Shown here: positions 753-32,608 of the stretch, in pieces
Layout of the letters: each line of letters opens with the position of its first letter
How positions within the stretch are numbered: position 1 is the stretch's first letter
From: an uncultured Prevotella sp.
GTDB taxonomy: Bacteria > Bacteroidota > Bacteroidia > Bacteroidales > Bacteroidaceae
Assembly: GCA_945787895.1 (NCBI GenBank)
Contig: CALZJQ010000014.1
Location: 1 to 34,455 of the forward strand
DNA length: 34,455 bases
Reading direction: 5' to 3'
The notes under the pieces: generated by a model
What the model was told of the DNA's origin: nothing
The model's input: only the letters and a program-made list of their open reading frames with translations
The model's database searches: none
Translations under genes and position numbers: made by a program

Positions 753-864
753 TTTTATGGTTTTACGGTTTTACGGTTTTACGGTTTTACGGTTTTACGG
801 TTTTACGGAGGTTTGTAATGGATGGTTGTAACTTCCGCATAACCGTACAACCGTACAACTGTAT
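753..864. repeat. Family A intergenic palindrome, copy A1
   Basis: Seven octads (one TTTTATGG, six TTTTACGG, 753-808) run into a 30-bp core at 807-836 of the form GGAGGTTTG-N10-TTGTAACTTCC. An A/C-rich arm with ACCGTACA units follows to 864. The core ends can pair with each other (ACGGAGGTT against AACTTCCG, one wobble) and the arms are roughly complementary. It lies between the M23 stop at 900 and the terminator at 642-681. The stretch 690-752 shows nothing recognisable. Confidence 0.85.
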
Positions 865-899
865 GATACTAATCAAGCCCTAACCTTGCGAAAGTCGAA

Positions 900-1844
900 T
901 TATGAATATCTCAGGATTTGTCCTGGACGGACCTTTACGTCGCGTGTCAGATGGTTGAGCTTGCAAAGCTGTTCCACTGTCACCCCACGACGCTTCGCAA
1001 TGCTTGTAAGTGTCTCTCCTGCAGATACCTTGTGGTATCTCGTCTCAGAGTATTGGCGCATCTTCTGGTTGTCGTCGCTGTTCTGCCTTCTGTTCTGTGC
1101 GACAGCCTCAGACTGTCTGGCATCCATCCTTATGTTGTTGTTTGCAGAAGCAGACTCTCTCTCATAACTGTTCTTGCGGAACATATAGTAGTCGGCGGTG
1201 ACGTCCTGGTTGGGGAAGTCGAAGAAGAGTGCTGGGTTGAGTGCTACGCCGCAGAGTCTTGTCTCAAAGTGCAGGTGTGAGCCGGTGGAACGTCCGGTGT
1301 TGCCGCCGAGTCCGATGGGCTGACCTGCCTTTACTGTCTGGTTTTCCTCTACGAGCCAGTCGCTCATGTGGCCGTAGATTGTCTCGAGGCCGTTGTTGTG
1401 GCGTATCACGAGATATTTTCCGTAGCCAGCTCTCTCATATTTCTTGATGCGCACCTTGCCGGAGAAGGCGGCGCGGATAGTGTCTCCGATATATACCTTT
1501 ATGTCGATGCCCTTGTGCATCCTGCCCCATCGCGGACCCATCTTGCTGGTCACGACGCGGTTTGTCGTAGGCATACAGAAATTGCGGAGGTTGATTCTGA
1601 ACGAGTCGGGCAGCTCCGTGGCACGGTGGGCGTATGTGTTCTCCCATTCGTCGTAGAGCTGTGCAGCAGGATTTTCAGCCATTTCCCTCTCGATGATGGA
1701 TTTGATGCTCAGCGTATCTACCGTGCGCATCCTGCGGTCAACGGGTGCCTGACGTGCAAGAAGGTCCTGCGCACATGCTGGCATGGACACGAGGATGAGC
1801 AATACGTTTACTATGACAAGAGTATAAATCTGTTTAAGTTTCAT
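900..1844 (-). CDS. Secreted M23 metallopeptidase with C-terminal LysM domain
   Basis: A 314-residue cell-wall hydrolase predicted to cut peptidoglycan cross-links in the periplasm. Residues 1-25 are a signal peptide (MKLKQIYTLV..., cleavage after ACA). The M23 (LytM/NlpD-like) domain spans about 95-210 with H110 and D114 in HKGID, H159 in YGHM, and H190/H192 in HLHFE. All expected zinc and catalytic positions are present, so it may be enzymatically active rather than a NlpD/EnvC-type degenerate activator. A Ser/Asn/Gln-rich linker (about 225-268) leads to one LysM module (about 269-314) that should bind glycan strands. I chose the ATG at 1844 because the signal peptide begins there; an in-frame upstream start would add 19 residues ahead of it. 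Monocistronic, with its own promoter and terminator. The substrate is inferred from the family. Confidence 0.9.
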   Translation of the reverse strand: MKLKQIYTLVIVNVLLILVSMPACAQDLLARQAPVDRRMRTVDTLSIKSIIEREMAENPAAQLYDEWENTYAHRATELPDSFRINLRNFCMPTTNRVVTSKMGPRWGRMHKGIDIKVYIGDTIRAAFSGKVRIKKYERAGYGKYLVIRHNNGLETIYGHMSDWLVEENQTVKAGQPIGLGGNTGRSTGSHLHFETRLCGVALNPALFFDFPNQDVTADYYMFRKNSYERESASANNNIRMDARQSEAVAQNRRQNSDDNQKMRQYSETRYHKVSAGETLTSIAKRRGVTVEQLCKLNHLTRDVKVRPGQILRYS

Positions 1845-1989
1845 TATTTTCTTTACAATTATTGTTAGGTTTAGGCGTGCCGTACGGGAGTGAAATACCA
1901 AAAAAGCACGGTATTTCGTGAAAAGGTGTCTTATTCAAATACAAAATGAATATCGACCGGCACCGAACCTCTGTTTCAAAAAATCACTG

Positions 1990-2020
1990 CAAAGTTAGTA
2001 AAAAAAATCGTAACAGGCAA
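1990..2020 (-). promoter_or_regulatory. Predicted promoter for the M23 peptidase gene
   Basis: Leftward TAACTTTG (1997-1990) matches the TAnnTTTG -7 element, with a TTG (2020-2018) 20 bp upstream. The leader would be about 140 nt. The surrounding 1902-2124 interval is AT-rich and otherwise shows no gene. Confidence 0.55.
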
Positions 2021-2124
2021 CATAAATCAAGAAAATGGGGTGTTTTTTTAACAATACTCCCGTTTTTTAACAATTTTTCATTTCTTTATATAGTCTTTTC
2101 CTAAACCAGTTTCTTTTTTTTTCT

Positions 2125-2132
2125 TAACTTTG
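2125..2132 (+). promoter_or_regulatory. Predicted -7 element for the GH43 gene
   Basis: TAACTTTG at 2125-2132 matches the Bacteroidota -7 consensus, but there is no clear TTTG at the -33 position, so support is moderate. If used, the GH43 leader would be about 225 nt and would contain repeat B1. Confidence 0.45.
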
Positions 2133-2188
2133 CAACGCAAAACCGACAAATTCAACTTTCGTAAGTCTGTGACTTGCGAAAGTTTCTG

Positions 2189-2336
2189 GTTGTAGTTCCT
2201 GGTTTTTGGTTTTAGGTTTTTGGTTGTGGGTTAGGTTTGCCTTGCTTAGTGAGAAATTCTCCATTAGAAAAGCTAACTAACCAACAACCGACAACCAAAA
2301 ACCGACAACCAAAAACCCACAACCAGGTACTACAAC
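2189..2336. repeat. Family B intergenic palindrome, copy B1
   Basis: The ends are inverted repeats: GTTGTAGTTCCTGGTT at the left and its complement with one mismatch ending at 2336. The left arm is built of heptads (GGTTTTT, GGTTTTA, GGTTTTT, GGTTGTG, GGTTAGG); the right arm has matching ACAACCAAAAACC units. The core contains the small palindrome GAGAAATTCTC at 2251-2261. The 39 bases 2251-2289 recur exactly, inverted, in copy B3. It lies in the presumed leader of the GH43 gene. Confidence 0.85.
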
Positions 2337-2366
2337 AAAACAACAAAACGACAAAACCAAAATGAT

Positions 2367-4481
2367 ATGAACATATTGAAAGCATTATGTCTTGTTTCCA
2401 TATTCGGAGCAAGTGTGAGTGGTGCAAAGGCGCAGCAGACAGGTAATCCTCAGATGGGTGACAGATACCTCTACTGCCACATGAGTGACAGGGGGCAGTG
2501 GACGGCATACGCTCTTTCGACGGACGGTCTCCACTATCATGACCTGCTGTGCGGAGACTCTGTCTTTTCCCCAAAGGAGATGGCAGGAATAGAAGGAGGT
2601 ACGCGCGATGCGTATATATGCAGGAAGCACGACCTGTCAGGCTATCTCATGGTGACGACAGACATGAACAACTCAATGACAAAGCGTCTGGGAAAGAAGG
2701 CCGACTGGGACAACTACGGTATCAACCTGCTTACTTCCGACGACCTCATCCACTGGAAATCTACGACGTTTGATTTCCGCAGGGGACTTGAAATATTCTC
2801 TGACGGAAACGACGTGAAGCGTTCGGCGTACAAGGACTGGTCCACAATCAACCGTGTATGGGCTCCGCAGATATTCTGGGATGCAGGCTATGCCTGGCAG
2901 GACGGCAGGAAAGGCGGCTACCTTATCTATTATTCTCTTTGGAACAGGGAAGAGGAAGCCTACGACAGGATGTATTATTCCTATGCCGATGAGACGTTTA
3001 CCACGCTGACGCAGCCGCGGCTGCTGTTTGACTGGGGGTATGCCACCATAGATGCGGACATCAATTACGTGCCGGCAGACAGCATGTACCACCTCATGAT
3101 AAAGAAGGAAGGCGGGCAGCCGGGACTTTTCACGTCCGTAAGCAAGTCGCTGACAGGGCCATGGCCTGAGCCTGATACCAAGGACTTTGTCAACTTTGAA
3201 GGCAAGAAGAAGTGTGAGGGCGTATCGGCCTTCCAGCTTGTAGGAGACAGCACGTGGCGCATCGCCTACATAGAATATTCTTCCAAGCCGCGCAATTACC
3301 GCATCTGCAAGGCGGATAAATTCATGCGCAACTTCTCTTCCCCGCAGAACATCGAGGGCGTGAACGGTCCGCAGCATGGGTCTTTCATGCGTATCACGCA
3401 GGAGGAGTATGACCGCCTGCAGAGATGGAGCGACGAACAGGAGGCAAAGCATCTTGCCCCGAACGTCAGCAACCCCGTCATTGCAGGCCTGTATGCCGAC
3501 CCGGAGATTCTTTTCTCGCAGAAGACAGGAAAGTATTATCTCTATCCCACCACTGACGGCATGGAGGGATGGCAGGGGCATGACTTCAAGGTGTTCTCTT
3601 CAGGCGACATGAAGACGTGGACGGAAGAGGGCACGATAATCGACCTTGCCACTGACCAGGTCTCCTGGGCAAAGGAATATGCCTGGGCTCCGTGCGCCGT
3701 CGAGGTGGCTTATCTCAAGGGAAAGATATGCAATACGCCGGAGATGCTGGCAAAGTTGGCAGCAGAGCGTGCAAAAGCAGAGAAGAAAGGAAAGCCGTCA
3801 AAGAAGATTTCATACAAGACTTTCTACTATTTTACGGCAGGAAAGCGCATCGGAGTAGCCGTAAGCGACGACCCCGCAGGACCTTTCGTCGAGCCATTGG
3901 GCAGGCCGCTCCTTGACAAGGCACCGCAGGGACAGGGCGGACAGGTCATTGACCCCGACGTCTTCCAGGACCCGCAGACGGGAAAGTACTATCTCTATTG
4001 GGGCAATTCCTATCTTGCCGTCTCCGAACTGGCTGACGACATGGTGAGTATCAAGGACACAAAGGTGCTGATTCCACGCGCAAGGAAACGCGACTATAAC
4101 TACAACGAGGGTACATACGTGTTCTACCGTGACGGAAAATACTATTTCTCATGGTCGGAGAATGATACCCGCTCGGCTTACTACCGCGTGCGCTACCTTA
4201 TCAGTGACTCGCCGACGGAGTTAGTCCGGGATGGCAGACCTGCCTTGACCGAGAAGACGATAGTCATCTCTCAAGACCCTTCAAAGCAGATATTCGGAAC
4301 CGGCCATCACTCGGTAGTCTGCAAGCCGGGCACCGATGAATGGTACATAGTATATCATCGTTTTGCTCGCCCCGAAGGCATCAAGAAGGGATGGTCAGCC
4401 GGTTACAACCGTGAAGTATGTATAGATAAACTGGAATTCAACGAAGATGGAACCATCAAGTCAGTCAAGCCGACTCTGTAG
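2367..4481 (+). CDS. Secreted two-module family 43 glycoside hydrolase
   Basis: A 704-residue predicted exo-acting glycosidase (GH43 covers arabinofuranosidases and xylosidases). Signal peptide at 1-23 (cleavage near AKAQQ), no lipobox. Two five-bladed propeller modules are visible. The N-terminal one, about 30-345, has TRDAY at 79-83, VWAPQIF at 164-170, TIDADI at 227-232, CEGVSAF at 283-289 and GPQHGSF at 334-340. The C-terminal one, about 366-704, has YADPE with likely base D378, YAWAP at 438-442, IDPDVF with D529, likely acid E581 in NEGTYVF, and GTGHHSV with H647/H648. A Lys/Ala-rich insert (about 452-483) interrupts the second module. The ATG at 2367 starts the signal peptide. The 3' end overlaps the next gene by 35 bp. 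Exact substrate cannot be told; plant arabinoxylan or arabinan is a reasonable inference. Confidence 0.85.
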   Translation: MNILKALCLVSIFGASVSGAKAQQTGNPQMGDRYLYCHMSDRGQWTAYALSTDGLHYHDLLCGDSVFSPKEMAGIEGGTRDAYICRKHDLSGYLMVTTDMNNSMTKRLGKKADWDNYGINLLTSDDLIHWKSTTFDFRRGLEIFSDGNDVKRSAYKDWSTINRVWAPQIFWDAGYAWQDGRKGGYLIYYSLWNREEEAYDRMYYSYADETFTTLTQPRLLFDWGYATIDADINYVPADSMYHLMIKKEGGQPGLFTSVSKSLTGPWPEPDTKDFVNFEGKKKCEGVSAFQLVGDSTWRIAYIEYSSKPRNYRICKADKFMRNFSSPQNIEGVNGPQHGSFMRITQEEYDRLQRWSDEQEAKHLAPNVSNPVIAGLYADPEILFSQKTGKYYLYPTTDGMEGWQGHDFKVFSSGDMKTWTEEGTIIDLATDQVSWAKEYAWAPCAVEVAYLKGKICNTPEMLAKLAAERAKAEKKGKPSKKISYKTFYYFTAGKRIGVAVSDDPAGPFVEPLGRPLLDKAPQGQGGQVIDPDVFQDPQTGKYYLYWGNSYLAVSELADDMVSIKDTKVLIPRARKRDYNYNEGTYVFYRDGKYYFSWSENDTRSAYYRVRYLISDSPTELVRDGRPALTEKTIVISQDPSKQIFGTGHHSVVCKPGTDEWYIVYHRFARPEGIKKGWSAGYNREVCIDKLEFNEDGTIKSVKPTL

Positions 4482-5007
4482 CCTGTTCGCTACGTTCTTC
4501 CGTATAGGATTGTTCACCTTCGGAGGCGGGTATGCAATGATACCCATCATCGAGGCGGAGGTGGTAGATAAACACAAGTGGATAGACAAGACGCAGTTTC
4601 TTGACCTCATTGCCGTGGCTCAGACCTGCCCCGGAGTGTTTGCAGTCAACATTTCCACGTTCATAGGCTACAAGTTGCGCAAGACGGCCGGAGCTTTCGC
4701 CTGCGCAATGGGGGCGGCCCTTCCCTCGCTTCTCATCATCCTTGCCGTCGCAATGTTCTTCAGGCAGTTTCAGGATGTTCCATGGGTGGCTTCGATGTTT
4801 GCAGGCATCCGCCCTGCCGTCGTAGCCCTCCTCGCCGTGCCTACGTGGAATCTCGCACGCCGGGCAGACATAACGTTCCTCACCTGCTGGATTCCCATCC
4901 TCAGTGCGTTGCTTATATGGGGGTTGGGAGTCAATCCTGTCTATATCATCATTGCGGCAGGTCTCGGCGGTTTCGTCTATGGACAATACATCAGACCGAC
5001 GGAGTAG
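4447..5007 (+). CDS. Chromate-transporter family subunit 1 (short CHR protein)
   Basis: A 186-residue inner-membrane protein of the CHR family in its half-size form. The signature FGGGYAMIPIIEAEVV follows the first hydrophobic stretch (about residues 24-39). PGVFAVNISTFIGYK comes next, and several hydrophobic helices follow (about 80-102, 112-130, 140-175). Short CHR proteins are usually encoded as adjacent pairs and are thought to form heterodimers of opposite topology, which fits the next gene. The only convincing start is the ATG at 4447, inside the last codons of the GH43 gene, so translational coupling is likely. Chromate export is known for some members, but in anaerobes the natural substrate is uncertain; other oxyanions are possible. 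Confidence 0.88.
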   Translation: MEPSSQSSRLCSLFATFFRIGLFTFGGGYAMIPIIEAEVVDKHKWIDKTQFLDLIAVAQTCPGVFAVNISTFIGYKLRKTAGAFACAMGAALPSLLIILAVAMFFRQFQDVPWVASMFAGIRPAVVALLAVPTWNLARRADITFLTCWIPILSALLIWGLGVNPVYIIIAAGLGGFVYGQYIRPTE

Positions 5008-5020
5008 CAGGCGCATAGTC

Positions 5021-5092
5021 GGTTATAAGGTTATAAGGTTTTTACGGAAGATACAAACAGCTTCTTCAAACCTCCGTATAACCTTAAAACCA
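5021..5092. repeat. Family A intergenic palindrome, copy A2 (inverted)
   Basis: A short, worn copy between the two chromate-transporter genes. On the minus strand the 30-bp core (5075-5046) reads GGAGGTTTG-N10-TTGTATCTTCC, matching A1, A3 and A4 with one change. The flanking arms are ggttataagg-type units on the left and accttaaaacc on the right. The orientation is opposite to A1, A3 and A4. Confidence 0.75.
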
Positions 5093-5149
5093 AAGAAGTT
5101 GAAGCTTGCGAAACTTGAGAAACACTACATTAAAAACCATCTATCAGCC

Positions 5150-5719
5150 ATGCTGTTCCTTACATTGTTCCTTACGTTCTTCATGATAGGACTCTTCGGA
5201 TTTGGAGGAGGATACGGAATGTTGTCGCTCATCCAGACGGAAGTGGTGCACAATCATCACTGGATGACTTCTGCCGAGTTTACAAACATCGTAGCCGTCT
5301 CACAGATGACGCCGGGTCCCATAGGCATCAATTCCGCTACATACTGCGGCTACACGGCGGTCCACAATGCGTATGGGAGTATGCTTTTCGGCATTCTCGG
5401 CTCTCTGACGGCTACCTTCGCCCTCATTCTCCCGAGTTTTGTCCTCATGATTCTCATCAGCCGTACATTGATAAAATATATGGACCGCCCCGGGGTGCAG
5501 AGCGCATTTGCAGGTCTCCGTCCCGCAGTGGTGGGGCTGTTGGGCGCCGCCACGCTGCTGCTGTGTAACGGGGAGAACTTCTCCACGCCCGACAATCCCT
5601 GGAATTTCTACATTTCCCTGTTCATCTTCCTTGCCTCCCTCATCGGAGTATTGATAGTGAAAGTCAATCCTGTCAAAATGATACTGTATGCGGCATTTGC
5701 CGGCTTGGTCCTGCTGTGA
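5150..5719 (+). CDS. Chromate-transporter family subunit 2 (short CHR protein)
   Basis: A 189-residue membrane protein paralogous to its upstream neighbour. It has FGFGGGYGMLSLIQTEVV near residues 18-35, TPGPIGINSATYCGY near 55-69, and hydrophobic helices to the C-terminus. I place the start at the ATG at 5150, giving MLFLTLFLTFF, which aligns with the first helix of subunit 1. Longer in-frame starts run back through repeat A2 and the 3' end of subunit 1 and give no family-like sequence. It probably pairs with subunit 1 to make one functional transporter. The substrate is uncertain. Confidence 0.88.
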   Translation: MLFLTLFLTFFMIGLFGFGGGYGMLSLIQTEVVHNHHWMTSAEFTNIVAVSQMTPGPIGINSATYCGYTAVHNAYGSMLFGILGSLTATFALILPSFVLMILISRTLIKYMDRPGVQSAFAGLRPAVVGLLGAATLLLCNGENFSTPDNPWNFYISLFIFLASLIGVLIVKVNPVKMILYAAFAGLVLL

Positions 5720-5816
5720 AGCGGCATTGTAGCATTTGCAGCGTCATTTCCTGCAGTTTCTCCAGGAATTGTCACAAGCAAGAATTCTCCTTGTAACACA
5801 CTGATAGACAATAGGT

Positions 5817-5901
5817 TGTAAAAGCGTTGATATTACAGTGCAAAAGCGTTGATATTACCTTGTAAAAGCTTGGCTTTTACAAGGTAATATCAACGCTTTT
5901 G
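5817..5901. terminator. 22-bp direct repeats feeding a perfect 29-bp-arm hairpin
   Basis: Two 22-bp direct units starting TGYAAAAGCGTTGATATTAC (5817-5838, 5839-5860) and the first 9 bases of a third (5861-5869) are followed by a 3-nt turn, TTG (5870-5872). An exact inverted copy (5873-5901) then pairs without mismatch with 5841-5869. The sequence continues as TTTTGCC, so it can act as a terminator for the chromate genes. The upstream direct copy can compete for the same pairing partner. The preceding 5720-5816 holds nothing else I recognise. Confidence 0.7.
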
Positions 5902-5961
5902 TTTTGCCATCTCAATATCGCCCTTTTCAGCTGTCTTTTCCATGGTGAAACAATAGTGAAA

Positions 5962-6095
5962 TTTGTTGTTTTGTTGTTTAGTTGTTTTGTTGTTTAGTTG
6001 TTTGTTTTTGCAAATGAGAAAAGCTATCAACAAGACCACAAAACCACAAGACCACAAAACCACAAGACCACAAGACCACAAGACCACAAAACCAC
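5962..6095. repeat. Family C intergenic palindrome, copy C1
   Basis: A left arm of TTGTTGTT / TAGTTGTT octads (5962-6005) is followed by a core containing GCAAATGAGAAAAGCTATC (about 6010-6028). The right arm is eight 8-bp units, AAGACCAC or AAAACCAC, at exactly 6032-6095 (64 bp). The right arm has diverged from strict complementarity with the left. It lies upstream of the ECF sigma gene. The gap 6096-6238 that follows holds no clear consensus promoter. Confidence 0.8.
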
Positions 6096-7819: not shown

Positions 7820-7831
7820 CAGGTGTCCAAA

Positions 7832-16356: not shown

Positions 16357-16579
16357 TGGTTTTCTCTACGGTTTTACGGTTTTATGGTTTTACGGTTTTA
16401 CGGAGGTTTGTAAGGCTGTTTGTTTTCTCTACGGTCATGTGGTTTTATGGTTTTACGGAGGTTTGAGAGGGCTGATTGTAACTTCCGTACAACCTTACAA
16501 CCTTACAACCGTATAACCTTACAACCGTATAACCTTACAACCGTATAACCCTATAACCGTAAAACCGTAGAGAAAACCA
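16357..16579. repeat. Family A intergenic palindrome, copy A3, with perfect 23-bp terminal inverted repeats
   Basis: The 23 bases at 16357-16379 (starting TGGTTTTCTCTACGG) are exactly complementary to 16557-16579. Inside are TTTTACGG/TTTTATGG octads and two copies of the left core half GGAGGTTTG (16402-16410 and 16457-16465). The second belongs to a complete 30-bp core, 16457-16486, with TTGTAACTTCC. The right arm has 16-bp units (AACCTTACAACCGTAT) up to 16550. This is the longest A copy and looks like one element partly duplicated within another. Confidence 0.88.
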
Positions 16580-16618
16580 AATAACAAATAATATCATAAC
16601 AACAAAAAAACAGCAATT

Positions 16619-17677: not shown

Positions 17678-17880
17678 AGTTTTGTTGTTTAGTGGTTTTG
17701 TTGTTTAGTGGGTTTGTTGTTTTGTTGTCTTGTTATTTTGTTATTTTGTTATTTGTCTTCGCAAATGAGAAAGATATCAACAAAACCACTAAATAACAAA
17801 ACCACTAAACAACAAATTTCAACTAAACAACAAAACAACAAAACCAACCAACAACCAATAACCAACTAAACAATAAAATA
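17678..17880. repeat. Family C intergenic palindrome, copy C2
   Basis: A long left arm of GTTGTTTAGTG/TTTTGTTG units (17678-17755) is followed by a core with CTTCGCAAATGAGAAAGATATC (about 17757-17778) related to C1, then ACAAAACCACTAAA-type units. It fills the gap between two convergent genes and could terminate both. Its right end runs into the 3' end of the leftward gene, supplying that gene's stop and last codons. Confidence 0.82.
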
Positions 17881-19290
17881 ACCTGCCAGCAGTGCTCCGT
17901 TCCATCCGAGACACCACAGGGTGACCGCCAGCAATGCGTACGACAGGAAACGGATAGAGGACTCCTTCAGCAGGTATGCCATGGATATGGGCAGGACGAA
18001 GAGGTAGTGTGCCGACATGATATATACCTCGTTGATTCCAAAGCCGAGACCGACGTGAAGGAGAAGGTCCGTGAACAGGAAGGACAGGGATGTCCAGAGA
18101 AACAGGCTGTGACGCCCTTTCCATATACCCATGAAGAACAGCATGACGAGAAATACTTCCACAGCATAGTTGACGTAACCCAAGGGGGTCGTCGTGTCAT
18201 ATCTCACTATAAGGGGACGGTTGCGCAGCACGTCGCCCAGCAGGTGGTCTTTGTGCAGCTGTATGCCTTCGCCCAGCATGCATTCTATGATGACATCCTT
18301 GCGGGATGTCGTCTTGTCGGTCCACCGCATGAATTCTCCCTGCATGAAGGGCTTGCCCGTGTTCCTGTTCCATATCTTCTTGCTGTCGCGCTGTTTCTTC
18401 GCCCGTGCCCTCTCCGTGATGACTTTCTTTACTTCGGCATCAATCTTTGCCTTGTCCGCCGTGCCGAGAGAGTCTTCCATCTTTTTGCGTATCAGTGCCC
18501 TCATGGCCTTGTCTTTCTTCTGCCTTATCTCTTGGCGTGCCAACTCTTTGGGCAGGACATAGTGCCGGTATTCCCAGCGGGCGAAGCTCCATATCATGGC
18601 AGAGGGGACTGCGACGGCCAACAGGAGGTAGCGCCATTCGAAGAATCTCCTGCGTCTCGTGAAGAGGGCAGAGAGGAATACCTTCAGTCCGTTGTTGAGG
18701 GAAATGCCTGCCGTGAGCAGAAAGAGGATGACGCTCTGCCACAGGTTCAGTGCCGACCCGTCCTTGAGCTTGCGTCCCGATATGTAAAGAGTAAGGGTGA
18801 GCGCCGACATCGACATGATGAAATGGTCGGGTACCATGGCAGAAAGCATTATGTAAGCCATGCTGAAAGTCAGTCCTGTCAGTATCCACGCATCCATTTT
18901 CCTCACGCCTATTATCTCAGAGAATATCCTGTACATGAAGAGGGCTGAAAGGGAGGAGCAGGACACGAGTATCAGGGCTGTGATGAAAATGGCGCAGTTG
19001 ATGCCCGTCAGCATGATAAGTCCCTGGTTTATCATATAGAACGGCCACATGAAGAATGCAAGCAACGGGTGTCTATAGACATTGTAAGCCGTGTCCCACT
19101 CAGATATGACCTGATATGTCAGGGGGTCAAACCCTGACATATGGAACTTGCCGACAAAGAGTTTGCGGTAGTTGTCCGTCAGCACTGTGAAATCGTCGTA
19201 ATACCATGCTATGGTGACTGCGTTTATCAGGACAAAGAAGATAACCGCGGCAAGCAATACGTATCGTTCCTCTTTACGAATGGAGAGCAT
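17866..19290 (-). CDS. Polytopic inner-membrane protein, DUF6080-like
   Basis: A 474-residue protein with about ten hydrophobic helices. YYDDFTVLTDNYRKLF after helix 1 and HPLLAFFMWPFYMINQG near residues 74-90 recall GT-C-like or O-antigen-polymerase-like enzymes. A markedly charged, Lys/Arg/Glu-rich soluble stretch of about 70 residues (about 247-318) separates the N- and C-terminal membrane halves. I place it tentatively in DUF6080, a Bacteroidota family without known activity. The ATG at 19290 is preceded directly by repeat A4. The last residues (YFIV and stop) overlap the end of repeat C2. It is not clearly in an operon. A role in surface-glycan assembly is only a guess from topology. Confidence 0.65.
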   Translation of the reverse strand: MLSIRKEERYVLLAAVIFFVLINAVTIAWYYDDFTVLTDNYRKLFVGKFHMSGFDPLTYQVISEWDTAYNVYRHPLLAFFMWPFYMINQGLIMLTGINCAIFITALILVSCSSLSALFMYRIFSEIIGVRKMDAWILTGLTFSMAYIMLSAMVPDHFIMSMSALTLTLYISGRKLKDGSALNLWQSVILFLLTAGISLNNGLKVFLSALFTRRRRFFEWRYLLLAVAVPSAMIWSFARWEYRHYVLPKELARQEIRQKKDKAMRALIRKKMEDSLGTADKAKIDAEVKKVITERARAKKQRDSKKIWNRNTGKPFMQGEFMRWTDKTTSRKDVIIECMLGEGIQLHKDHLLGDVLRNRPLIVRYDTTTPLGYVNYAVEVFLVMLFFMGIWKGRHSLFLWTSLSFLFTDLLLHVGLGFGINEVYIMSAHYLFVLPISMAYLLKESSIRFLSYALLAVTLWCLGWNGALLAGYFIV

Positions 19291-19400: not shown

Positions 19401-19558
19401 TATTTTGTTGTTTTGTTGGATTACATCCGACCTTTTCTCGCCAAGGCAATGATTGAGCAAGCTCATCATTGCTCATCAGGCTTATCGGAAACGTTGGATT
19501 TTCTTAGACCAGGTCGAAGAATACCTGTTGTTTTGTTGTTTTTGTTGTTGTGTTGTCT
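19401..19558. other. Non-coding island between repeats A4 and B3
   Basis: No gene seen. TTGTTG-rich stretches at both sides (19401-19420, about 19528-19558) resemble family C arms. The middle holds a small hairpin: CAATGAT-T-GAGC (19447-19458) pairs with GCTC-ATCATTG (19461-19471) around AA. The remaining 19475-19527 has no recognised feature. Confidence 0.5.
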
Positions 19559-19559
19559 T

Positions 19560-19685
19560 GTTGTAGTTCCTGGTTTTGGGTTTTAGGTTTTTGGTTGTTG
19601 GTTAGTTAGCTTTTCTAATGGAGAATTTCTCAAGAGGGGAGTCTATCTAACCAACAACCCAAAACCCAAAACCTGGAACTACCAC
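19560..19685. repeat. Family B intergenic palindrome, copy B3 (core inverted relative to B1)
   Basis: Its ends are GTTGTAGTTCC-type at the left and GGAACTACCAC at the right. Left heptads are GGTTTTG, GGTTTTA, GGTTTTT, GGTTGTT, GGTTAGT; the right arm carries ACCCAAA units. The 39 bases 19593-19631 are the exact reverse complement of 2251-2289 in B1. It lies just past the stop of cvfB and probably forms its 3' hairpin. Confidence 0.85.
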
Positions 19686-19700
19686 AAGACAGAGAAACAA

Positions 19701-20609
19701 TTATCCAACCAACTCAATCCCTTCGTCGCTGATAGTGATGAGCCTGCGCTTGTAAAGGTCGCCGATGGCACGCTTGTAGGTCTTCTTGCTGACTTGAAAC
19801 TGTTCGCGGATTTCCTCCGCACTGCTTTTGTCGCCGAGCCGGCAACGACCGCCACGATACTCTAAATAGCGGAGAAGGTACTCGGAAAAGTCTTCCGTGT
19901 GCTTGCGGCCGAAAGGCTGGAGGCTGATGTCTATCTTGCCGTCAGGACGTATCTTGGAGATATATGCCTCGACCCTGTCTCCTGTATGCAGCTCACGGAA
20001 TATCTGAGTGTCGTAGAGCAGGGCAGGGTATTTGTTGTCTATGATTGCCTTGAAGCCCAGGTCGGTCTTTTGCCATACCAAAGCCTCTACTTTCTCTCCC
20101 ACCTTGAGGGTGACAGGCTTGCCGCCTGCAGTCACGGGACAGCCCCCCTCGTCCACTTCGTATGCCGTGCCGTCACTGCCAGGCCTTACAGTCCTCAGAT
20201 AATGCTCCACCTTTGCCGAGGCTACGATGCGGAAGCTCTCGTCGTCGAGATGGACGTGGACTATGTACGACCGTCCCTGCACCATGCGCTGCTTCTGCTC
20301 GCGGAAAGGGCAGAAGAGGTCTTTCATCAGTCCCCAGTCAAGGAATGCACCATATTCATTGACCCATGCCACCTCAAGGAAAGCAAAATCTCCCACCATG
20401 GCTTTTGGCTCTAAGGTCGTGGCTATGCGTCGCTCTTCGTTGTCGAGATATACGAAGACTTCAATTTCATCTCCTATTGCGAGGTCGTCGGGGACGTAGC
20501 GGTTTGGCAGGAGTATCTTTCCTTCCTCGTCACCTTCAAGATATACTCCAAATTCTACTTTCCACGATGCTTTCAAGCGATTTTTTCTGCCTAATAATAT
20601 TTTTTTCAT
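19701..20609 (-). CDS. cvfB: CvfB-family S1-domain RNA/DNA-binding protein
   Basis: A 302-residue cytoplasmic protein of the CvfB (YitL) family, known from Gram-positive bacteria as a pleiotropic regulator binding RNA. It opens MKKILLGRKNRLKASWKVEF, with GVYLEGDEEGKILLPNRYVP forming the first S1-like module (about 10-62). A second lies at about 70-130 (VNEYGAFLDWGLMKDLFCPF), a third at about 166-232 (DLGFKAIIDNKYPALLY), and a C-terminal winged helix at about 240-302 (FQVSKKTYKRAIGDLYKRRLI). It is the last gene of a three-gene leftward operon, 27 bp after lolD. The ATG at 20609 fits the family start. Its targets in this organism are unknown. Confidence 0.9.
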   Translation of the reverse strand: MKKILLGRKNRLKASWKVEFGVYLEGDEEGKILLPNRYVPDDLAIGDEIEVFVYLDNEERRIATTLEPKAMVGDFAFLEVAWVNEYGAFLDWGLMKDLFCPFREQKQRMVQGRSYIVHVHLDDESFRIVASAKVEHYLRTVRPGSDGTAYEVDEGGCPVTAGGKPVTLKVGEKVEALVWQKTDLGFKAIIDNKYPALLYDTQIFRELHTGDRVEAYISKIRPDGKIDISLQPFGRKHTEDFSEYLLRYLEYRGGRCRLGDKSSAEEIREQFQVSKKTYKRAIGDLYKRRLITISDEGIELVG

Positions 20610-23631: not shown

Positions 23632-24645
23632 ATGAAAGTAGCAATTGTTGGCGCAAGTGGTGCGGTAGGACAAGAGTTCCTTCGCATCCTCGATGAGAGA
23701 AATTTTCCTATGGATGAGTTGGTTTTGTTCGGCAGTAAGCGTTCTGCTGGTACCAAATATACATTCAAGGGTAAGGAATATGAGGTGAAACTCTTGCAGC
23801 ACAACGATGATTTTAAGGATGTTGACATAGCGTTCACCTCTGCAGGGGGAGGCACAAGCGAGGAGTTTGCTGAGACGATAACAAAGTATGGAGCTGTGAT
23901 GATTGACAATTCCAGTGCGTTCCGTATGTGCGATGACGTACCATTGGTAGTGCCTGAGTGTAATGCAGAGGATGCTCTCAACCGTCCCCGCAATATTATC
24001 GCAAACCCTAATTGTACTACTATCATGATGGTGGTGGTGCTGAAACCTATAGAAAAGCTCTCACATATCAAGAGAATACACATATCAAGCTATCAGAGCG
24101 CATCAGGAGCCGGAGCTGCTGCAATGGCTGAACTTCAGCAGCAATACAAAGAACTCATTGAAACAGGAGAGGCTAAGACCATTGAGAAATTCCCACACCA
24201 GTTGGCTTATAATGTCATTCCTCAGATTGACAAGATGACGGGAAATGACTATACCAAGGAAGAAATGAAGATGTTTAATGAGACACGCAAGATTATGCAT
24301 AGCGATGTGCGTACCAGCGCAACGTGTGTACGTGTGTCTTCTTTGCGCAGTCATTCTGAGTCTGTATGGGTAGAGACAGAGACCCCTCTGACAGTAGAGC
24401 AGGTGCGCGAAGCATTGAAAGCGGCTGAAGGCGTGACACTTGTCGATGATCCTCAGAACTATATCTACCCCATGCCTCTCGAAAGCGCAGGCAAGGATGA
24501 TGTTTACGTAGGACGCGTGCGTCAGGATTTGGCTAATGACAATGGTATTACTCTGTGGCTTACAGGAGACCAGATACGTAAGGGAGCGGCTCTTAACGCT
24601 GTTCAGATAGCAGAATATCTCATCAAGGTGGGCAACGTGAAGTAG
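23632..24645 (+). CDS. asd: Aspartate-semialdehyde dehydrogenase
   Basis: A 337-residue NADPH-dependent enzyme that reduces aspartyl phosphate to aspartate semialdehyde, the branch point to lysine/diaminopimelate, threonine and methionine. The Rossmann motif is [15 protein letters not shown] (6-20). The catalytic cysteine is C128 in NPNCTT and the likely active-site histidine is H242 in [20 protein letters not shown] (154-167) is typical. Length and motifs are normal. It starts at the ATG at 23632, after an A-rich leader. The stop codon is followed without gap by repeat C3, which separates it from dxs. Confidence 0.96.
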
Positions 24646-24794
24646 TTGTTTAGTTGTTTAGTTGTTTAGTTGTCTGGTTGTTTGGTTGGTAGCATTCGAC
24701 TCAATTGCCAAGACAAACAACCAAACAACCAGACAACCAAACAACCAAACAACCAAACAACCAAACAACCAAACAACCAAACAACAAGACAACC
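24646..24794. repeat. Family C intergenic palindrome, copy C3
   Basis: The left arm TTGTTTAG octads begin immediately after the asd stop. A core with ATTCGACTCAATTGCCAAGA (24694-24713) resembles C4 and, inverted, C1 and C2. The right arm is eight octads, ACAACCAA (one ACAACCAG), at exactly 24717-24780 (64 bp), with a degenerate tail. The arms can pair over most of their length. It lies in the asd-dxs gap and is open in the dxs reading frame. Confidence 0.85.
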
Positions 24795-24815
24795 CCACAC
24801 CTTTATATAATAGTC

Positions 24816-28142: not shown

Positions 28143-28195
28143 CCTTTGATATTTGTGGAGAAACGCATTGAAAAATACCTACTTCCCTCAGAAAA

Positions 28196-29650
28196 ATGAA
28201 TACTAAACTGATATGTAAGATATTAGGGTCGCTCCTATTCCTTGAGTCCTTGTTTATGATATTTTGTCTTGTAATCTCGATAAGGTATCATGAGGATGAT
28301 TTGTTCGCTTTTTTAGTCTCTATATTGATTACTCAAGGCTTCGCATTTATATTCAGATACATAGGACGCAATGCGGACAATTCTCTTGGAAGACGAGAGT
28401 CTTTCCTTGTTGTCACGCTCGCATGGAGCGTCTTTAGTCTTTTCGGTACGTTGCCATACATGATAGGAGGGTACATTACAGACTTTACCAATGCGTATTT
28501 TGAGTCAATGTCAGGATTTACCACGACGGGATGTACTATTCTTGATGACGTAGAGTGTTTGCCTCACGGCATCCTCTTCTGGCGCAGTCTCTCGCAGTGG
28601 ATAGGAGGATTGGGTATTGTTTTCTTTACTATTGCCGTCTTGCCTTCCATGGTTGGAGGTTCGGTGAAGGTCTTTTCTGCTGAAGCCACTGGACCGATAA
28701 AGACAAAATTGCATCCACGTCTGAGTAATTCGGCAAAGAGTATATGGACTATTTTCCTTGTGCTCACCATCCTCTGTGGTGTCAGTTTCTATGCTTTAGG
28801 TATGGATGTTTTTGATAGCGTCTGCCATGCCATGACCACGCTTGCCACTGGAGGCTTCTCTACTCATAATGATAGCATTGAGTTCTTCAATTCTCCTGCA
28901 ATAGAATATGCCAGCACTTTCTTCTGTTTCCTTTCTGGAATAAACTTTATTCTCCTGTATAATATGGTGATAAGAGGAAAGGTGGGCAATCTCCTGCGTA
29001 ATCCCGAGGTGCGCTTTTACGTTCTGATAATATTCCTTTTTTCTGTCTTTATCATGGTTGAACTTATCATAAGGAATGACTATGGTTATGAGCGTGCTTT
29101 CCGTTGCGCTGTCTATCAGGTCGTGTCATTTATCACGACCACCGGTCTTTTCAATGATGATGCCGGACAATGGCCGCACGTCACGTGGGTCGTTCTCGCA
29201 GTCTGTATGTTCATGGGAGGATGCGCAGGAAGTACGAGCGGCGGTTTCAAGTCCATCAGATGCGTCATGCTTCTCAAAATCGTGCGTAATGAGTTCGTCC
29301 ATATGCTTCATCCGAGAGCTGTATTGCCATTGAGAATAGGGGATAATAACGTCCCTAATGATAAGCGTGTGACTCTCCTTGCCTTTCTTACTATCTATTG
29401 TATAATGTGTATTGTTTGTGCTTTTACGATGATAGCTGCGGGAGTGGATAATACAAATGCCATTACTATCACAATATCTACTCTCAGTAATGTAGGTCCC
29501 ACGCTTGGTGTGGAAATAGGTCCTACGATGTCATGGGATCATTTGCCGGATTTTGCAAAGTGGATATGCTCATTTCTCATGCTCATGGGGCGTCTCGAAA
29601 TCTTCTCTGTCCTGATAATCTTCACCCCCTCTTTCTGGAAGGATAGGTAG
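28196..29650 (+). CDS. trkH: Trk-type potassium channel subunit
   Basis: A 484-residue inner-membrane K+ uptake protein with the four pore-loop repeats of the SKT superfamily: SMSGFTTTGCT (about 104-114), MTTLATGGFST, VVSFITTTGLFND and TLSNVGPTLG. Each supplies the filter glycine. GRLEIFSVLIIFTPSFW near the C-terminus is typical of TrkH. It works with the TrkA protein encoded upstream. The dxs-trkA-trkH order looks like one operon. The ATG at 28196 follows a short gap. The stop is followed directly by repeat C4, which probably serves as terminator. I cannot tell whether transport is coupled to H+ or Na+. Confidence 0.95.
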   Translation: MNTKLICKILGSLLFLESLFMIFCLVISIRYHEDDLFAFLVSILITQGFAFIFRYIGRNADNSLGRRESFLVVTLAWSVFSLFGTLPYMIGGYITDFTNAYFESMSGFTTTGCTILDDVECLPHGILFWRSLSQWIGGLGIVFFTIAVLPSMVGGSVKVFSAEATGPIKTKLHPRLSNSAKSIWTIFLVLTILCGVSFYALGMDVFDSVCHAMTTLATGGFSTHNDSIEFFNSPAIEYASTFFCFLSGINFILLYNMVIRGKVGNLLRNPEVRFYVLIIFLFSVFIMVELIIRNDYGYERAFRCAVYQVVSFITTTGLFNDDAGQWPHVTWVVLAVCMFMGGCAGSTSGGFKSIRCVMLLKIVRNEFVHMLHPRAVLPLRIGDNNVPNDKRVTLLAFLTIYCIMCIVCAFTMIAAGVDNTNAITITISTLSNVGPTLGVEIGPTMSWDHLPDFAKWICSFLMLMGRLEIFSVLIIFTPSFWKDR

Positions 29651-29797
29651 GTTTGTTGTTTAGTTATTTAGTTGTTTAGTTGGCTGTGCCACAAATGAGT
29701 GGTTTAGTTGTTTTGTTGTTTAGTTAATAATATTCGTCTCAATAGCCAAGACAAACAACTAAACAACCAAACAACTAAACAACTAAACAACCAACTC
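29651..29797. repeat. Family C intergenic palindrome, copy C4
   Basis: TTTGTTGTTTAGTT-type units start at the trkH stop. An extra internal segment GCCACAAATGAG (29688-29699) resembles the C1/C2 core. A second core follows, ATTCGTCTCAATAGCCAAGA (29732-29751), matching C3 with few changes. The right arm is ACAACTAA/ACAACCAA octads. It ends at the stop codon of the convergent DUF5686 gene. The presence of two cores suggests a fused or rearranged copy. Confidence 0.82.
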
Positions 29798-32378
29798 AAA
29801 ACGTCATTCGGAACATAAACCTTATACCGTGCTTGTTGCTTGTAGGCAATTCAAGATAGTTCATGCGGCGGACATATTCTACGTGTAGTATCTTGAAAAT
29901 GTTGTGAATGCCTGCGATAAGTTCGATGTAAGGTTTGTTTTTATCCATGAGATAACAACCCTCGGGAAATACCATGAGCATATCATCACCTTCGTTTTGC
30001 TTGAGGAAAGGATTGTTCTTGTCAGAGAGAGTGCCCCATAGAGCCTTGACGCCGATGAACTCACGCCATTTAAGTTTCTTGATGAGTGGTATGCGGTTGA
30101 ATAATTTGCCGTTGAAGTCCCAGCTCATGTCCAGCGATACGAAGCGGTCGTTGAGGAACTCCATATTGTTGATAAGGTTGAAGGTCTCGTCCTCCATGAT
30201 GTAGGAGAGGTTGGCTGCAGGGGTGATGAGCAGAGGATATGGCACTTTGTCCCATTGTATGCCGCTCTTGATGTAACAATCTATCTTTCCCCAACTCTTC
30301 ATCCAGAAACGCTTGTATATGTCGAGAGTGGTGTAGTTGAAGCGATAGTCACCTCCGAGGAAGTCTTTCAGTCCGAAAACGTGATTGACAGAGAAGACTG
30401 GGGCATCAAGATTGATGGTCAATCTGCGCTGTTTCGTGTTGATAAATGTCTCTCCCGGAGCGATGCGGAGACCGATGCTCAGTTCTGTAGTGCGATATTT
30501 GCCACGTCCGTCCCATACGTGGGGATAGTCGTCTGGATTGTAAGGGCTGACAGCTTGCTGGGCGAGGGTAGTGTAGTGCATCGCTCCGCAAGCCTCGTTC
30601 TCCTCAGTCTTGAGGCTTATCGTTGTCTTGAAGCCCCATTCTTCTTCGCGTTCAAACTTCAGTTCCTGACGGTTCTGGAACATCATCTTATCCACTGTTG
30701 CCCATTTCCACGCTGTGAACACGTTATCCTTGTCCGTATGTACGAATTTGTCGCTTGGCGAGCATACATCGTACGACGAGGTGAAAGCGAGGGTGCGGCG
30801 TGGGAACTCACGCGGGAGGTACTCCTTTTTATTGAAAGAGTAGATGATGGAGCCGCTGTAATAGTTCTTTTTGCTGCCCCATGCACGGGCTGCATAACCC
30901 GAGAAGAACCAATGTTTGTTGAGGTTGGCAGTGGTCTGAGCTGAAATACGCGTGCGGAAGCCGTCGATGAAGTTGGAGGTCAGCATTGTGTTGATAGGAC
31001 CTATATCCACCTTGGAATCCTTGGCGCTCGTCTCTACAAAGTTCTCTATGAACGCTTTCAGACCGAAGATGAAGTACTTGAAGCCTTTTATGTTCTCGAT
31101 ATGTGAAAGGAAGGAACCCATGCCGTTCTCTGCCTTGGTAAGTTCTACCTGACGGTATTTATTCCAGAAATCATCGCCACGCATCATAGCGTCAGCTTCT
31201 TTTACCTCTTTTGCCTTGCCTTTGAACAATTGTCGGGGCAGGTCATCGAAGGCATAGTCTGTGAGACGTGTGGTACGAATGACTGCTGTGCGCGTTATCC
31301 ATTTGGCAAAGCATAGCTCTGCTATCATGTCATCGACGGAGAGTGACCATGAGGAGTCTGGCAGCTGCGTGAATTCCTGTATCACTTTCAGGTTCTCTAC
31401 GAAGTTGACGTCGCTCTTCTTCGGTATCGTCAGTTCGCAGCGTTTTACCTGATAGCTTGAGTCGGCAAGTATATATATGTCTCCACGGAAACCAAAGTCC
31501 TGCTGATTGTTGGGCAGGAAGTTGAGGTGAATACATTTGTCTTTATCTACATACAGTGTGTCGTCTATGTAGAAGCGGTAAAAGCTGATAGCATCTTTGC
31601 CTATCGGCGAGGTGAAAGGATATTGCAACATACGTATCTGGTCATCGTAGATGTTGACATCCGTGAAGACGTCCTTCAATACGGTGGTGAGTATGTCTCC
31701 TGTCTGGAAAAGGTCGTTGATACCCGAGGAGTTTTGACCTTTGATAATTGTCTTTTCTGAGTGCGGATGCTTGCGGTATATTTTCTGTGATACGGTCTCG
31801 TCAACGGAGATAGGCAGTATTACCTTTCCCGTATAGTCGCATTTCTCCAACTGTTCTTTGAGCCATGGGTGCTTCACGAAACGCTTTGAGCGCAGGGTGT
31901 CGGCGTTTACATCGTTGAGCGCAAGAGTTATCTTTTGGTATTTGTTATATTGATAGAAGTCGCGGTTGCTGAGGTCGGTCTGCTTCTTGTGCTCTATGAC
32001 CTTTTTCATCAGTTCTACGGCAGGGTTGTTTTTTCGGCTGTATTTACTTCTTTTCCTCTTTATGACTACCTCTTCGAGACTTTTTGTGTCTGGTTTAAGA
32101 CGTATGTTTAGGTGGTCAGACGTAGAGTTTGTTATCCTTACGGTCTGTGATACGTAGCCTACCGCACTGAATGTCAAATCCCATCCATTGCGTCGTGCTA
32201 TCTTATAGTGTCCATTTATGTCGGATATAGCAGACAATCCTCGTCCTTTATATACTACAGAGACGAGAGGTATGCTGTCTTTTGTCTCTGCATCGAGGAC
32301 GTGTCCTGTAATCTGTGCGTTTGCAGGAAGCACAATAAAGAGTAATGTTATCAGTACGAAAAACAATTTTTTTACCAT
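29796..32378 (-). CDS. DUF5686 outer-membrane protein with carboxypeptidase-like regulatory domain
   Basis: An 860-residue exported protein. Signal peptide at 1-21 (cleavage after ANA). The carboxypeptidase-D regulatory-like domain (about 22-95) opens ITGHVLDAETKDSIPLVSV and contains ISDINGHYKIARR. A periplasmic region (about 110-430, SKYSRKNNPAVELMKKVIEHK at its start) precedes a C-terminal beta-rich barrel (about 440-860) ending in RFMFRMTF with a terminal phenylalanine, the usual signal for insertion by the Bam complex. This matches DUF5686 proteins, common in Bacteroidota and of unknown function. It has none of the TonB plug motifs, so it is not a SusC receptor. It lies downstream of the inositol-phosphate synthase gene in the same orientation but separated by repeat B4. 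Confidence 0.85.
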   Translation of the reverse strand: MVKKLFFVLITLLFIVLPANAQITGHVLDAETKDSIPLVSVVYKGRGLSAISDINGHYKIARRNGWDLTFSAVGYVSQTVRITNSTSDHLNIRLKPDTKSLEEVVIKRKRSKYSRKNNPAVELMKKVIEHKKQTDLSNRDFYQYNKYQKITLALNDVNADTLRSKRFVKHPWLKEQLEKCDYTGKVILPISVDETVSQKIYRKHPHSEKTIIKGQNSSGINDLFQTGDILTTVLKDVFTDVNIYDDQIRMLQYPFTSPIGKDAISFYRFYIDDTLYVDKDKCIHLNFLPNNQQDFGFRGDIYILADSSYQVKRCELTIPKKSDVNFVENLKVIQEFTQLPDSSWSLSVDDMIAELCFAKWITRTAVIRTTRLTDYAFDDLPRQLFKGKAKEVKEADAMMRGDDFWNKYRQVELTKAENGMGSFLSHIENIKGFKYFIFGLKAFIENFVETSAKDSKVDIGPINTMLTSNFIDGFRTRISAQTTANLNKHWFFSGYAARAWGSKKNYYSGSIIYSFNKKEYLPREFPRRTLAFTSSYDVCSPSDKFVHTDKDNVFTAWKWATVDKMMFQNRQELKFEREEEWGFKTTISLKTEENEACGAMHYTTLAQQAVSPYNPDDYPHVWDGRGKYRTTELSIGLRIAPGETFINTKQRRLTINLDAPVFSVNHVFGLKDFLGGDYRFNYTTLDIYKRFWMKSWGKIDCYIKSGIQWDKVPYPLLITPAANLSYIMEDETFNLINNMEFLNDRFVSLDMSWDFNGKLFNRIPLIKKLKWREFIGVKALWGTLSDKNNPFLKQNEGDDMLMVFPEGCYLMDKNKPYIELIAGIHNIFKILHVEYVRRMNYLELPTSNKHGIRFMFRMTF

Positions 32379-32408
32379 TGATTTTTTTATGTATTAATCC
32401 TAATTATT

Positions 32409-32421
32409 CTGTATTATACAG
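32409..32421. promoter_or_regulatory. 13-bp palindrome before the DUF5686 gene
   Basis: CTGTATTATACAG is a perfect 6-1-6 palindrome about 30 bp upstream of the DUF5686 start. It is operator-sized and AT-rich, but may be chance. No TAnnTTTG element is seen in 32379-32479. Confidence 0.3.
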
Positions 32422-32479
32422 TATTTCTTTTCTGTGATTGTTCCATAGTAATAGAATTGTGTTTTTCGTGGGGGGGATA

Positions 32480-32608
32480 GTTGGTTTTTGGTTGTGGGTT
32501 TTTGGTTGTGGGTTTTTGGTTGGGTTACCTTTGCCTTTTGAGCAAGTCTCCATTGGCAACGCATTATCAACCAAAAACCTACAACCGAAAACCCAAAACC
32601 ATCAACCA
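32480..32608. repeat. Family B intergenic palindrome, copy B4
   Basis: Heptads alternate GGTTTTT and GGTTGTG three times, then GGTTGGG. The core has ACCTTTGCCTTTTGAGC and CTCCATTGG, related to the other B cores. The right arm is ACCAAAAACCTACAACCGAA-type units. It separates the inositol-phosphate synthase gene, whose stop is at 32611, from the DUF5686 gene. Confidence 0.82.

What the first reader, a model, noticed from the sequence alone, without database searches (positions are those of the whole stretch)
753..32608. Twelve intergenic palindromes on one plan: G/T-rich 7- or 8-bp units, unique core, A/C-rich units
Copies A1-A4 (octads, ACGGTTTT type), B1-B4 (heptads, GGTTNNN type) and C1-C4 (octads, TTGTTGTT type) fill most larger gaps in 34 kb. 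Within each family the core is conserved between copies, while the arms differ in unit number. Families share design and some core letters (AGGTTTG at the entry of A and B; GAAAAGCTA in B and C cores), suggesting a common origin or mechanism. The G-bearing arms repeat GG every 7-8 nt and could form hairpins or two-layer G-quadruplexes. Possible roles are terminators, mRNA stabilisers, nucleoid or topology sites, or small non-autonomous mobile repeats. I know of no described family with this exact build, but could not search.
Basis: partly seen in the sequence, partly recalled or inferred. Interest (0 to 1): 0.78.

Follow-up and report, generated by a model that had tools for sequence, protein, structure and literature searches.

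The report
Palindromic repeat spacers between bacterial genes
Many small palindromes built from 7- or 8-letter repeats sit between the genes of this bacterium, often reaching from one gene's stop codon to the next gene's start; a minority lie inside small elements that carry the scars of insertion.

Summary
In detail: 11 sites in the window (4 A, 3 B, 4 C) share the plan G/T-rich 7-8-bp array, core, A/C-rich array. In 1.215 Mb of the host genome (44%), a unit-blind detector found 96 B/C-type elements: 103 pairs in G/T-then-A/C order, 0 in the opposite order. Cores recur between copies.

New: (1) A, B and C palindromes also occur inside one 152-277-bp chassis ('D') with inverted-repeat ends; 16 of 22 such units have flanking direct repeats of 7 nt or more, against 6.9% of mismatched flanks. 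That is MITE-type insertion, but only 1 of the 96 elements matched a complete D unit. (2) Elements abut coding sequence: ATG starts at the last arm base in 24 of 68 cases. (3) Arms vary independently and show a two-unit period. (4) The core patterns were not found in other species searched, yet the nearest sampled relative has gap palindromes with other units.

Best reading: dispersed palindromes, some MITE-borne, with slippage-prone arms. Terminators and REP/RAYT are not supported. No transposase partner found; function open. New variant of a known kind.

The parts
753..862 (+). A1: octad arm (ACGGTTTT), A core, right arm; degenerate D-like ends at about 727-748 and 872-898 (by eye)
5020..5119 (-). 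A4: short A element with an intact D1 end at 5096-5119 and no D2 end seen; lies after the stop of the chromate-transporter ORF 4447-5007 and before the Pfam match of the next one (inside the called ORF 4904-5719)
16357..16580 (+). A2: doubled left arm, A core, right arm; outer ends GTTTTCTCTACGG / CCGTAGAGAAAAC; 7 nt after a stop codon
19294..19400 (+). A3: A element with a left GTTTTCTCTACGG end
2190..2350 (.). B1: heptad arms (mostly GGTTKTD), B core; the A/C arm ends a few nt before the ORF start at 2367
2154..2184 (.). D-type hairpin AACTTTCGTAAGTC-TGT-GACTTGCGAAAGTT next to B1
19545..19700 (.). B2: B element framed by GTAGTTCCTGG / CCTGGAACTAC, abutting the stop codon of the minus-strand gene 19701-20609
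32481..32609 (.). B3: B element abutting the stop codon of the myo-inositol-1-phosphate synthase gene (minus strand)
5962..6095 (.). C1: octad arms (GTTGTYTD), C core
17679..17882 (.). C2: C element between convergent genes, overlapping the end of the 17866-19290 ORF; B-like heptads at the right end
24643..24801 (.). C3: C element beginning in the stop codon of asd and filling most of the asd-dxs gap; in G122, G008 and G133 (tblastn) and G001 (by sequence) dxs begins at about the stop codon of asd
29651..29792 (.). C4: C element between convergent trkH and DUF5686 genes, next to both stop codons
19501..19525 (.). E: imperfect palindrome TTCTTAGACC-AGGTCGAAGAATACC next to the B2 arm; the same motif lies beside arms elsewhere in the genome (by eye)

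Best explanation
These are families of short dispersed palindromes whose arms behave as minisatellites, and part of them travel as MITE cargo. Shown: A, B and C cores recur as homologous sequences at many sites. All three also occur as the filling of one chassis (D) with inverted-repeat ends and target-site-like direct repeats, so D-bounded copies were inserted by a transposase-like process. Not shown: how the far more numerous B/C copies outside D were dispersed; a transposase acting in trans, not found, is the inferred agent for D. Inferred from the repeat pattern: arms lengthen and shorten by slippage in two-unit steps (16 or 14 bp), each arm on its own. Inferred: selection and deletion trim the rest of the gap, so surviving elements run up to stop and start codons. 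The polarity (G-bearing arm first on either strand) means that a gene starting beside an element is preceded by an A/C arm with almost no start-like codons, so the element is tolerated in either orientation. I do not think it has one dedicated regulatory role.
For: Recurring cores. Polarity 66:0 and 37:0. D-bounded units with direct repeats of 7 nt or more: 5 of 7 in the discovery sample (mismatched pairs 4.8%), 4 of 4 in held-out stretches (8.3%, p=0.04), 16 of 22 pooled, which includes units of both samples (6.9%, permutation p below 2e-4). The 22 units hold A (15), C (2), B (3, by eye) or degenerate A-like (2, by eye) fillings. B/C core orientation is random to tandem genes: 22 same, 18 opposite. 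Arm lengths are uncorrelated, and left/right complementarity is no better within than between elements. Odd/even lag pattern. Stop and start abutment. TAG stops 27 of 48 beside elements against 114 of 484 elsewhere. Start-like codons 0.06 against 7.20 per 40 nt in A/C and G/T arms.
Against: Only 1 of the 96 detector elements matched a complete D unit, and B/C elements as a class have no flanking direct repeats: 3 of 60 against 5.5% by chance. So transposition is shown only for a minority, mostly A. No autonomous partner was found, though the assembly is fragmented (198 contigs, 88.85% complete). Slippage alone should make adjacent units alike; adjacent units are less alike than shuffles. Gaps occupied in G000 are longer than in relatives (median 245.5 against 121.5 nt, 14 rows, 13 distinct gaps), but unoccupied gaps are longer in G000 too (90 against 42, 85 rows), so this is weak. 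The trimming step has no direct test. Polarity was the same in every pair detected, also where no start codon is near, so selection at starts is not its only cause. My confidence fell from 0.58 to 0.5 after the count.
Confidence: 0.5

Rival explanations
1. Selected cis-acting RNA hairpins: the mRNA hairpin between two cistrons protects 3' ends, insulates or couples translation, or brings stop and start codons together.
For: Stop-arm-core-arm-start arrangement in 34 of 94 elements; strong predicted folds, z -3.5 to -10.7 in 6 window elements; the nearest sampled relative fills gaps with different palindromes of similar plan.
Against: Arms do not co-vary within an element and their lengths are uncorrelated. 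Occupancy is not shared between lineages: G095 against G000, 1 both, 4 and 4 single, 16 neither, p=1; with three double-occupied gaps found separately added, p=0.17. B/C core orientation is random to genes.
Confidence: 0.23
2. Pure simple-sequence arrays: 7-8-bp slippage tracts, as in Xanthomonas and Nostoc, with no mobility of their own; palindromes arise by fold-back copying.
For: Unit sequences differ between species; 7-bp arrays overlapping stop codons are known elsewhere (PMC4692102, passages); in SUG860 the cores look unrelated to each other by eye; nearly all B/C elements lie outside D.
Against: Recurring 20-45-nt cores in many copies and direct repeats around D units need copying to new sites.
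Confidence: 0.17
3. Binding-site arrays for a nucleoid or segregation protein that reads a 7-8-bp unit.
For: Octad positions 1, 2 and 7 are 97-99% fixed while position 8 is free among A, G and T; the unit filter and the detector favour this result in part.
Against: Arms differ in related species of the same genus; three unit families coexist in one genome; placement follows gene borders.
Confidence: 0.06
4. REP/BIME elements moved by a RAYT (Y1 transposase).
For: Intergenic palindromes in high copy; TAG stops at element ends, as reported for GTAG REPs (PMC3733652, passage).
Against: Only one Y1_Tnp match, below cut-off (22 bits against 23), in the own genome; arms are tandem arrays, not a single short stem; D units have direct repeats, which REP insertions are not known for (recalled).
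Confidence: 0.03

Closest known systems
BrickBuilt MITE of Porphyromonas gingivalis (PMC4596501; first of nine parts of the text, with abstract, and passages read)
   Same: Bacteroidales; intergenic; minisatellite inside a MITE with inverted-repeat ends; variable repeat number; direct repeats at 3 of 4 copies examined there; limited host range
   Different: 23-nt unit, 19 copies, 49-591 nt from genes, no arms-core-arms palindrome described in what I read; here 7/8-nt units on both sides of a core, 96 elements in 44% of the genome, abutting stop and start codons, several fillings in one chassis
Heptamer repeats GGGAATC (Xanthomonas) and GGGGA(C/T)T (Nostoc) (PMC4692102; start of abstract and 12 passages read)
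   Same: Intergenic 7-bp arrays, G-rich, many convergent inverted pairs, repeats overlapping stop codons, G-strand on the coding side after a stop
   Different: The passages read describe one unit type per studied genome, with no conserved core and no mobile chassis
TAACTGA heptamer arrays of Beggiatoaceae, Cyanobacteria and some Bacteroidetes (PMC4679880; most of the abstract and passages read)
   Same: 7-bp arrays directly upstream of start codons, some overlapping stop codons; patchy distribution
   Different: Direct repeats with one inverted case in the main genome; no palindromic core described in the passages read; 2-6 copies per set there
GTAG/CGTC REPs (PMC3733652; part of abstract and passages read)
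   Same: Intergenic palindromes in high copy, some ending genes with TAG
   Different: 20-40 bp, single short stem, RAYT-linked (GTAG type); here long tandem arms and no RAYT match above cut-off

Membership tests
MITE | Short, non-coding, dispersed | tested here: met
   22 D-bounded units of 152-277 bp; 46 D1-like (up to 2 mismatches) and 36 D2-like ends (up to 3) in the genome
MITE | Terminal inverted repeats | tested here: met
   TCAA(G/C)TTTCGCAAG / CTTGCGAAA(G/C)TTGA at D ends. Not tested for B/C elements without D
MITE | Target-site duplication | tested here: met
   D-bounded units only: 16 of 22; 4 of 4 in held-out stretches. Not met for B/C elements as a class: 3 of 60
MITE | Related autonomous element | tested here: inconclusive
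   No D1-D2 span with a transposase seen; genome incomplete, and ends were matched with few mismatches
BrickBuilt | 23-nt tandem repeat between leader and tail | tested here: not met
   Units are 7 and 8 nt around a core
REP/BIME with RAYT | RAYT (Y1 transposase) in the genome | tested here: inconclusive
   One match at 22 bits, cut-off 23; assembly incomplete
REP/BIME with RAYT | 20-40-bp unit with a short stem | tested here: not met
   Median B/C element length 143 bp, tandem arms
Intergenic 7-mer SSR (Xanthomonas/Nostoc type) | Head-to-tail 7-bp units in gene gaps, near stops or starts | tested here: met
   B arms are heptads; abutment
Intergenic 7-mer SSR (Xanthomonas/Nostoc type) | Array alone, no conserved core (from the passages read) | tested here: not met
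   Recurring cores
Intrinsic terminator | Stem followed by a T run | tested here: not met
   T run after 19 of 191 element ends against 319 of 4000 random positions. The consensus scan (12 hits against 16.5 and 15 against 11.4 in shuffles) allows loops of 3-8 only and cannot see hairpins with a 20-45-nt core
Rfam RNA family | Match above gathering score | tested here: not met
   0 matches in the window

The most novel reading that the evidence does not exclude
A general process in part of this genus builds and renews palindromic spacers between genes: each lineage has its own vocabulary of 7-9-bp units, arms turn over independently of position and core, and the product leaves genes with a start-codon-free leader. 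In G000 it has been captured by, or arose from, a MITE chassis that can carry any of three palindromes. [quoted passage not shown]
Probability: 0.15. Interest if true: 0.82.

Novelty: new variant of a known kind. Interest (0 to 1): 0.6.

Why it matters
It links two kinds of bacterial repeat that are usually treated apart, mobile palindromes and short tandem arrays, in one modular element. It shows gene gaps occupied from stop codon to start codon by repeats, with unit sequences that differ between species of one genus. That makes the question of what fills bacterial intergenic space, selection or self-renewing sequence, testable by comparing strains.

Tried and rejected
REP/RAYT: not supported. 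Terminators: not supported; the consensus scans cannot see these long-loop hairpins and count for little. Co-evolving hairpin arms: not supported. RNA-specific core: made unlikely by random orientation. Direct repeats around B/C elements: looked for, not found. Orthologous maintenance of sites between G000 and G095: not supported. Three double-occupied gaps looked striking, but came from a screen of G000-occupied gaps only, and one search's edge rule missed them; added by hand the table gives p=0.17. One search also scores at least one G000 gap with an A-like element as empty, and counts terminator-like palindromes of G095 as occupied.

'G/T arms supply stops in all frames' as the reason for polarity: weak, 258 of 576 frames against 234 of 576 for the other arm. 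Exact A-core pattern in the GTDB collection: 0 (the tool may leave out the own genome and very near ones). Phage collection with C3: no match. The arm pattern's single hits in unrelated phyla look by eye mostly like short isolated palindromes. Orthologues of the L050 gene block gave no useful empty site.

Limits: genes were called by a simple longest-ORF rule (ATG/GTG/TTG; ATG only). The detector penalises C in G/T arms, and units were kept only if 5 of 8 letters matched, so unit purity is in part ascertainment. Searches cover B/C-type elements, not A. No expression data. The collections searched hold one genome per species, so no same-species strain was compared.

Full report
WHAT IS THERE. 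The window is a contig (G000:C14) of a 2.758-Mb, 198-contig genome, 88.85% complete. Genes for a SusC-type receptor, FecR, DUF5686 and GH43 point to Bacteroidales. That the genus is Prevotellaceae is inferred: same-genus genome G021 has the same two matches, at the same contig numbers and coordinates (C1:1439-1490, C164:2421-2480), as contigs titled 'uncultured Prevotellaceae bacterium'. The window holds 11 palindromic sites: A1-A4, B1-B3, C1-C4. Ten of 11 beat all 100 shuffles clearly; A4 does so weakly. No Rfam family and no tRNA was found.

GENOME-WIDE. A detector that knows nothing of the units (a G/T run followed by an A/C run within 160 nt) found 66 pairs (61 elements) in 831 kb, and 37 pairs (35 elements) in 384 kb of held-out stretches, against 0 and 0 of the opposite order. 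Scaled to the genome this is about 220 elements (extrapolation); it misses most A elements. The A core pattern has 25 matches, the C core pattern 17. The 96 elements cover 14,152 of 1,215,489 bases, median length 143.

ANATOMY. Octad units are GTTGTYTD: positions 1, 2 and 7 are 97-99% fixed; position 8 is G, T or A, with C in 5 of 618. Both the detector and the unit filter favour such purity. Heptad units are mostly GGTTKTD. Cores recur within families, and many B and C cores share AATGGAG-like letters, by eye. Left and right arms of one element are no more complementary than arms of different elements (p=0.63 heptads, n=13; p=0.996 octads, n=38), and their lengths do not correlate. Position-8 letters agree less than within-array shuffles at lag 1 (z -3.4) and lag 3 (-2.3), and more at lag 2 (+4.3) and lag 4 (+2.2); lags 5 and 6 are not distinct. 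Heptads agree more at lag 2 (+3.8) but less at lag 4 (-2.6, 36 pairs). Read simply, copies are made two units at a time.

NESTING AND MOBILITY. A, B and C palindromes occur inside a common chassis D: CTCAAGTTTCGCAAGCTTCAACTT on one side, CTGAGCAAGTCNNNGACTTGCGAAAGTTGA on the other. Flanking direct repeats of 7 nt or more: 5 of 7 in the first sample, 4 of 4 in held-out stretches, 16 of 22 pooled, with mismatched pairs at 6.9% and permutation p below 2e-4. Of 25 D1-D2 spans, three of 515, 1330 and 2968 bp were left out of that count. The 1330-bp one holds a 359-aa ORF, a glycosyltransferase by eye, between two units. D-bounded copies are a minority: 1 of the 96 detector elements matched one, and B/C elements as a class show no such repeats, 3 of 60. 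No transposase with these ends was found, and the only Y1 transposase match is below cut-off.

PLACE. In the first sample 52 of 70 adjacent stop codons lie within 20 nt of an element or overlap it, median 4. With both samples, 68 start codons lie within 60 nt of a B/C element, 24 of them with ATG at the last base of the A/C arm and 58 within 20 nt; 34 of 94 elements lie between a stop and a start, 11 touch neither. Random 140-bp intervals in 190 element-free gaps of 150 bp or more give 0.20 stops within 10 nt against 0.65, and 0.22 starts within 20 nt against 0.60. Stop codons beside elements are TAG in 27 of 48 cases against 114 of 484 (p=8e-6); at several B elements the TAG is the element's own end. 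The A/C arm before a start has 0.06 start-like codons per 40 nt, the G/T arm 7.20.

RELATIVES. The exact A-core pattern was not found in the GTDB collection (the tool may leave out the own genome). The C core pattern is absent from 59 relatives, 35 of the same genus. The C-arm pattern occurs in 1 of 149 other same-genus genomes, G021. Among named species it also occurs in Prevotella sp. SUG860 (7 loci; in 5 of 7 an ATG closely follows the A/C arm, by eye), where cores differ. G095, the best DNA match for the asd-trkH region among 150 genomes, has 49 of 125 gaps palindromic, ordinary terminator-like palindromes included, with its own units (TGAAAAAT, TACTATT, GGAGTACAA, GGTGTTGG types). Tandem-armed palindromes by one stricter rule: G000 57 of 489 gaps, G095 13 of 125, G158 2 of 31, G008 1 of 30, G021 1 of 8, none in 16 other genomes, 12 of these sampled at only 20 kb. 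Another rule, inverted array pairs, gives 103 in G000 (17 direct pairs), 3 in G158, 2 each in G133 and G001, not all of them true palindromes by eye. G-left polarity holds in 56 of 57 in G000 and 9 of 13 in G095, but in 0 of 3 in G158 and G008.

At asd-dxs, G122, G008 and G133 and G001 have almost no gap, G158 a short one, while G000 and G095 both have a palindrome, with different arms. Two more gaps are occupied in both. Across 104 syntenic pairs occupancy is not shared: G095 1 both, 4 and 4 single, 16 neither; other relatives 0 of 79 occupied. The three cases above were missed by that table; added, p=0.17.

READING. D-bounded units behave as MITEs. The palindromes they carry exist outside the chassis in far larger number; how those copies spread is not shown. 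The arms behave as minisatellites. The tight fit to stop and start codons is best explained by tolerance plus trimming, since nothing indicates selection on pairing within an element. This is inference. My confidence was lowered from 0.58 to 0.5, and the two main rivals raised a little.

LITERATURE. In the listings of nine searches (one returned nothing, the others showed 6-20 papers each) I saw no paper on these elements; the library lacks most subscription journals. Nearest in kind: BrickBuilt (PMC4596501), Xanthomonas/Nostoc heptamers (PMC4692102), TAACTGA arrays (PMC4679880), GTAG REPs (PMC3733652) and palindromic candidate RNAs, several in Bacteroidetes (PMC8040213, passages). RepRanger (PMC12306157) was seen in a search listing only.

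Noticed in passing
window 445-550: A 9-bp / 27-bp tandem array (CGGTTGTTGCGGTTGTAACGATTGTTA) upstream of the FGAR-AT-like gene, unlike the 7/8-bp families.
   Followed up: no
window 5816-5915: A strong 43-nt-arm palindrome with 22-bp repeats followed by T-rich sequence; the longest terminator-like hit of the window.
   Followed up: partly
window 19501-19525; L031, L049, L050, L053, L054: A separate palindrome GGTATTCTTCGACCWGGTCGAAGAATACC, or close variants, lies next to the arms of C elements (by eye).
   Followed up: partly
L196 3592-3689 and 4463-4579 (G001): Two palindromes with different arms (AAGAGTG heptads, GAAAAATT octads) share the core letters CCGCATGG, a parallel to the A/B/C situation.
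   Followed up: no
L174 / L182 asd-dxs gap (G095): The G095 palindrome core has CCATTGGAAA, as in some G000 B cores (CTCCATTGGAAAGAC); not tested against chance.
   Followed up: no
L117 (Desulfobacterales HSG2) and L103, L105 (Mariniflexile): Similar G/T-array then A/C-array palindromes in unrelated bacteria; in Mariniflexile L103 apparently also between a stop and an ATG (by eye).
   Followed up: no
L053 13857-14130: A C element with a 211-nt left arm that also contains GTTTTT hexad stretches mirrored on the right side.
   Followed up: no
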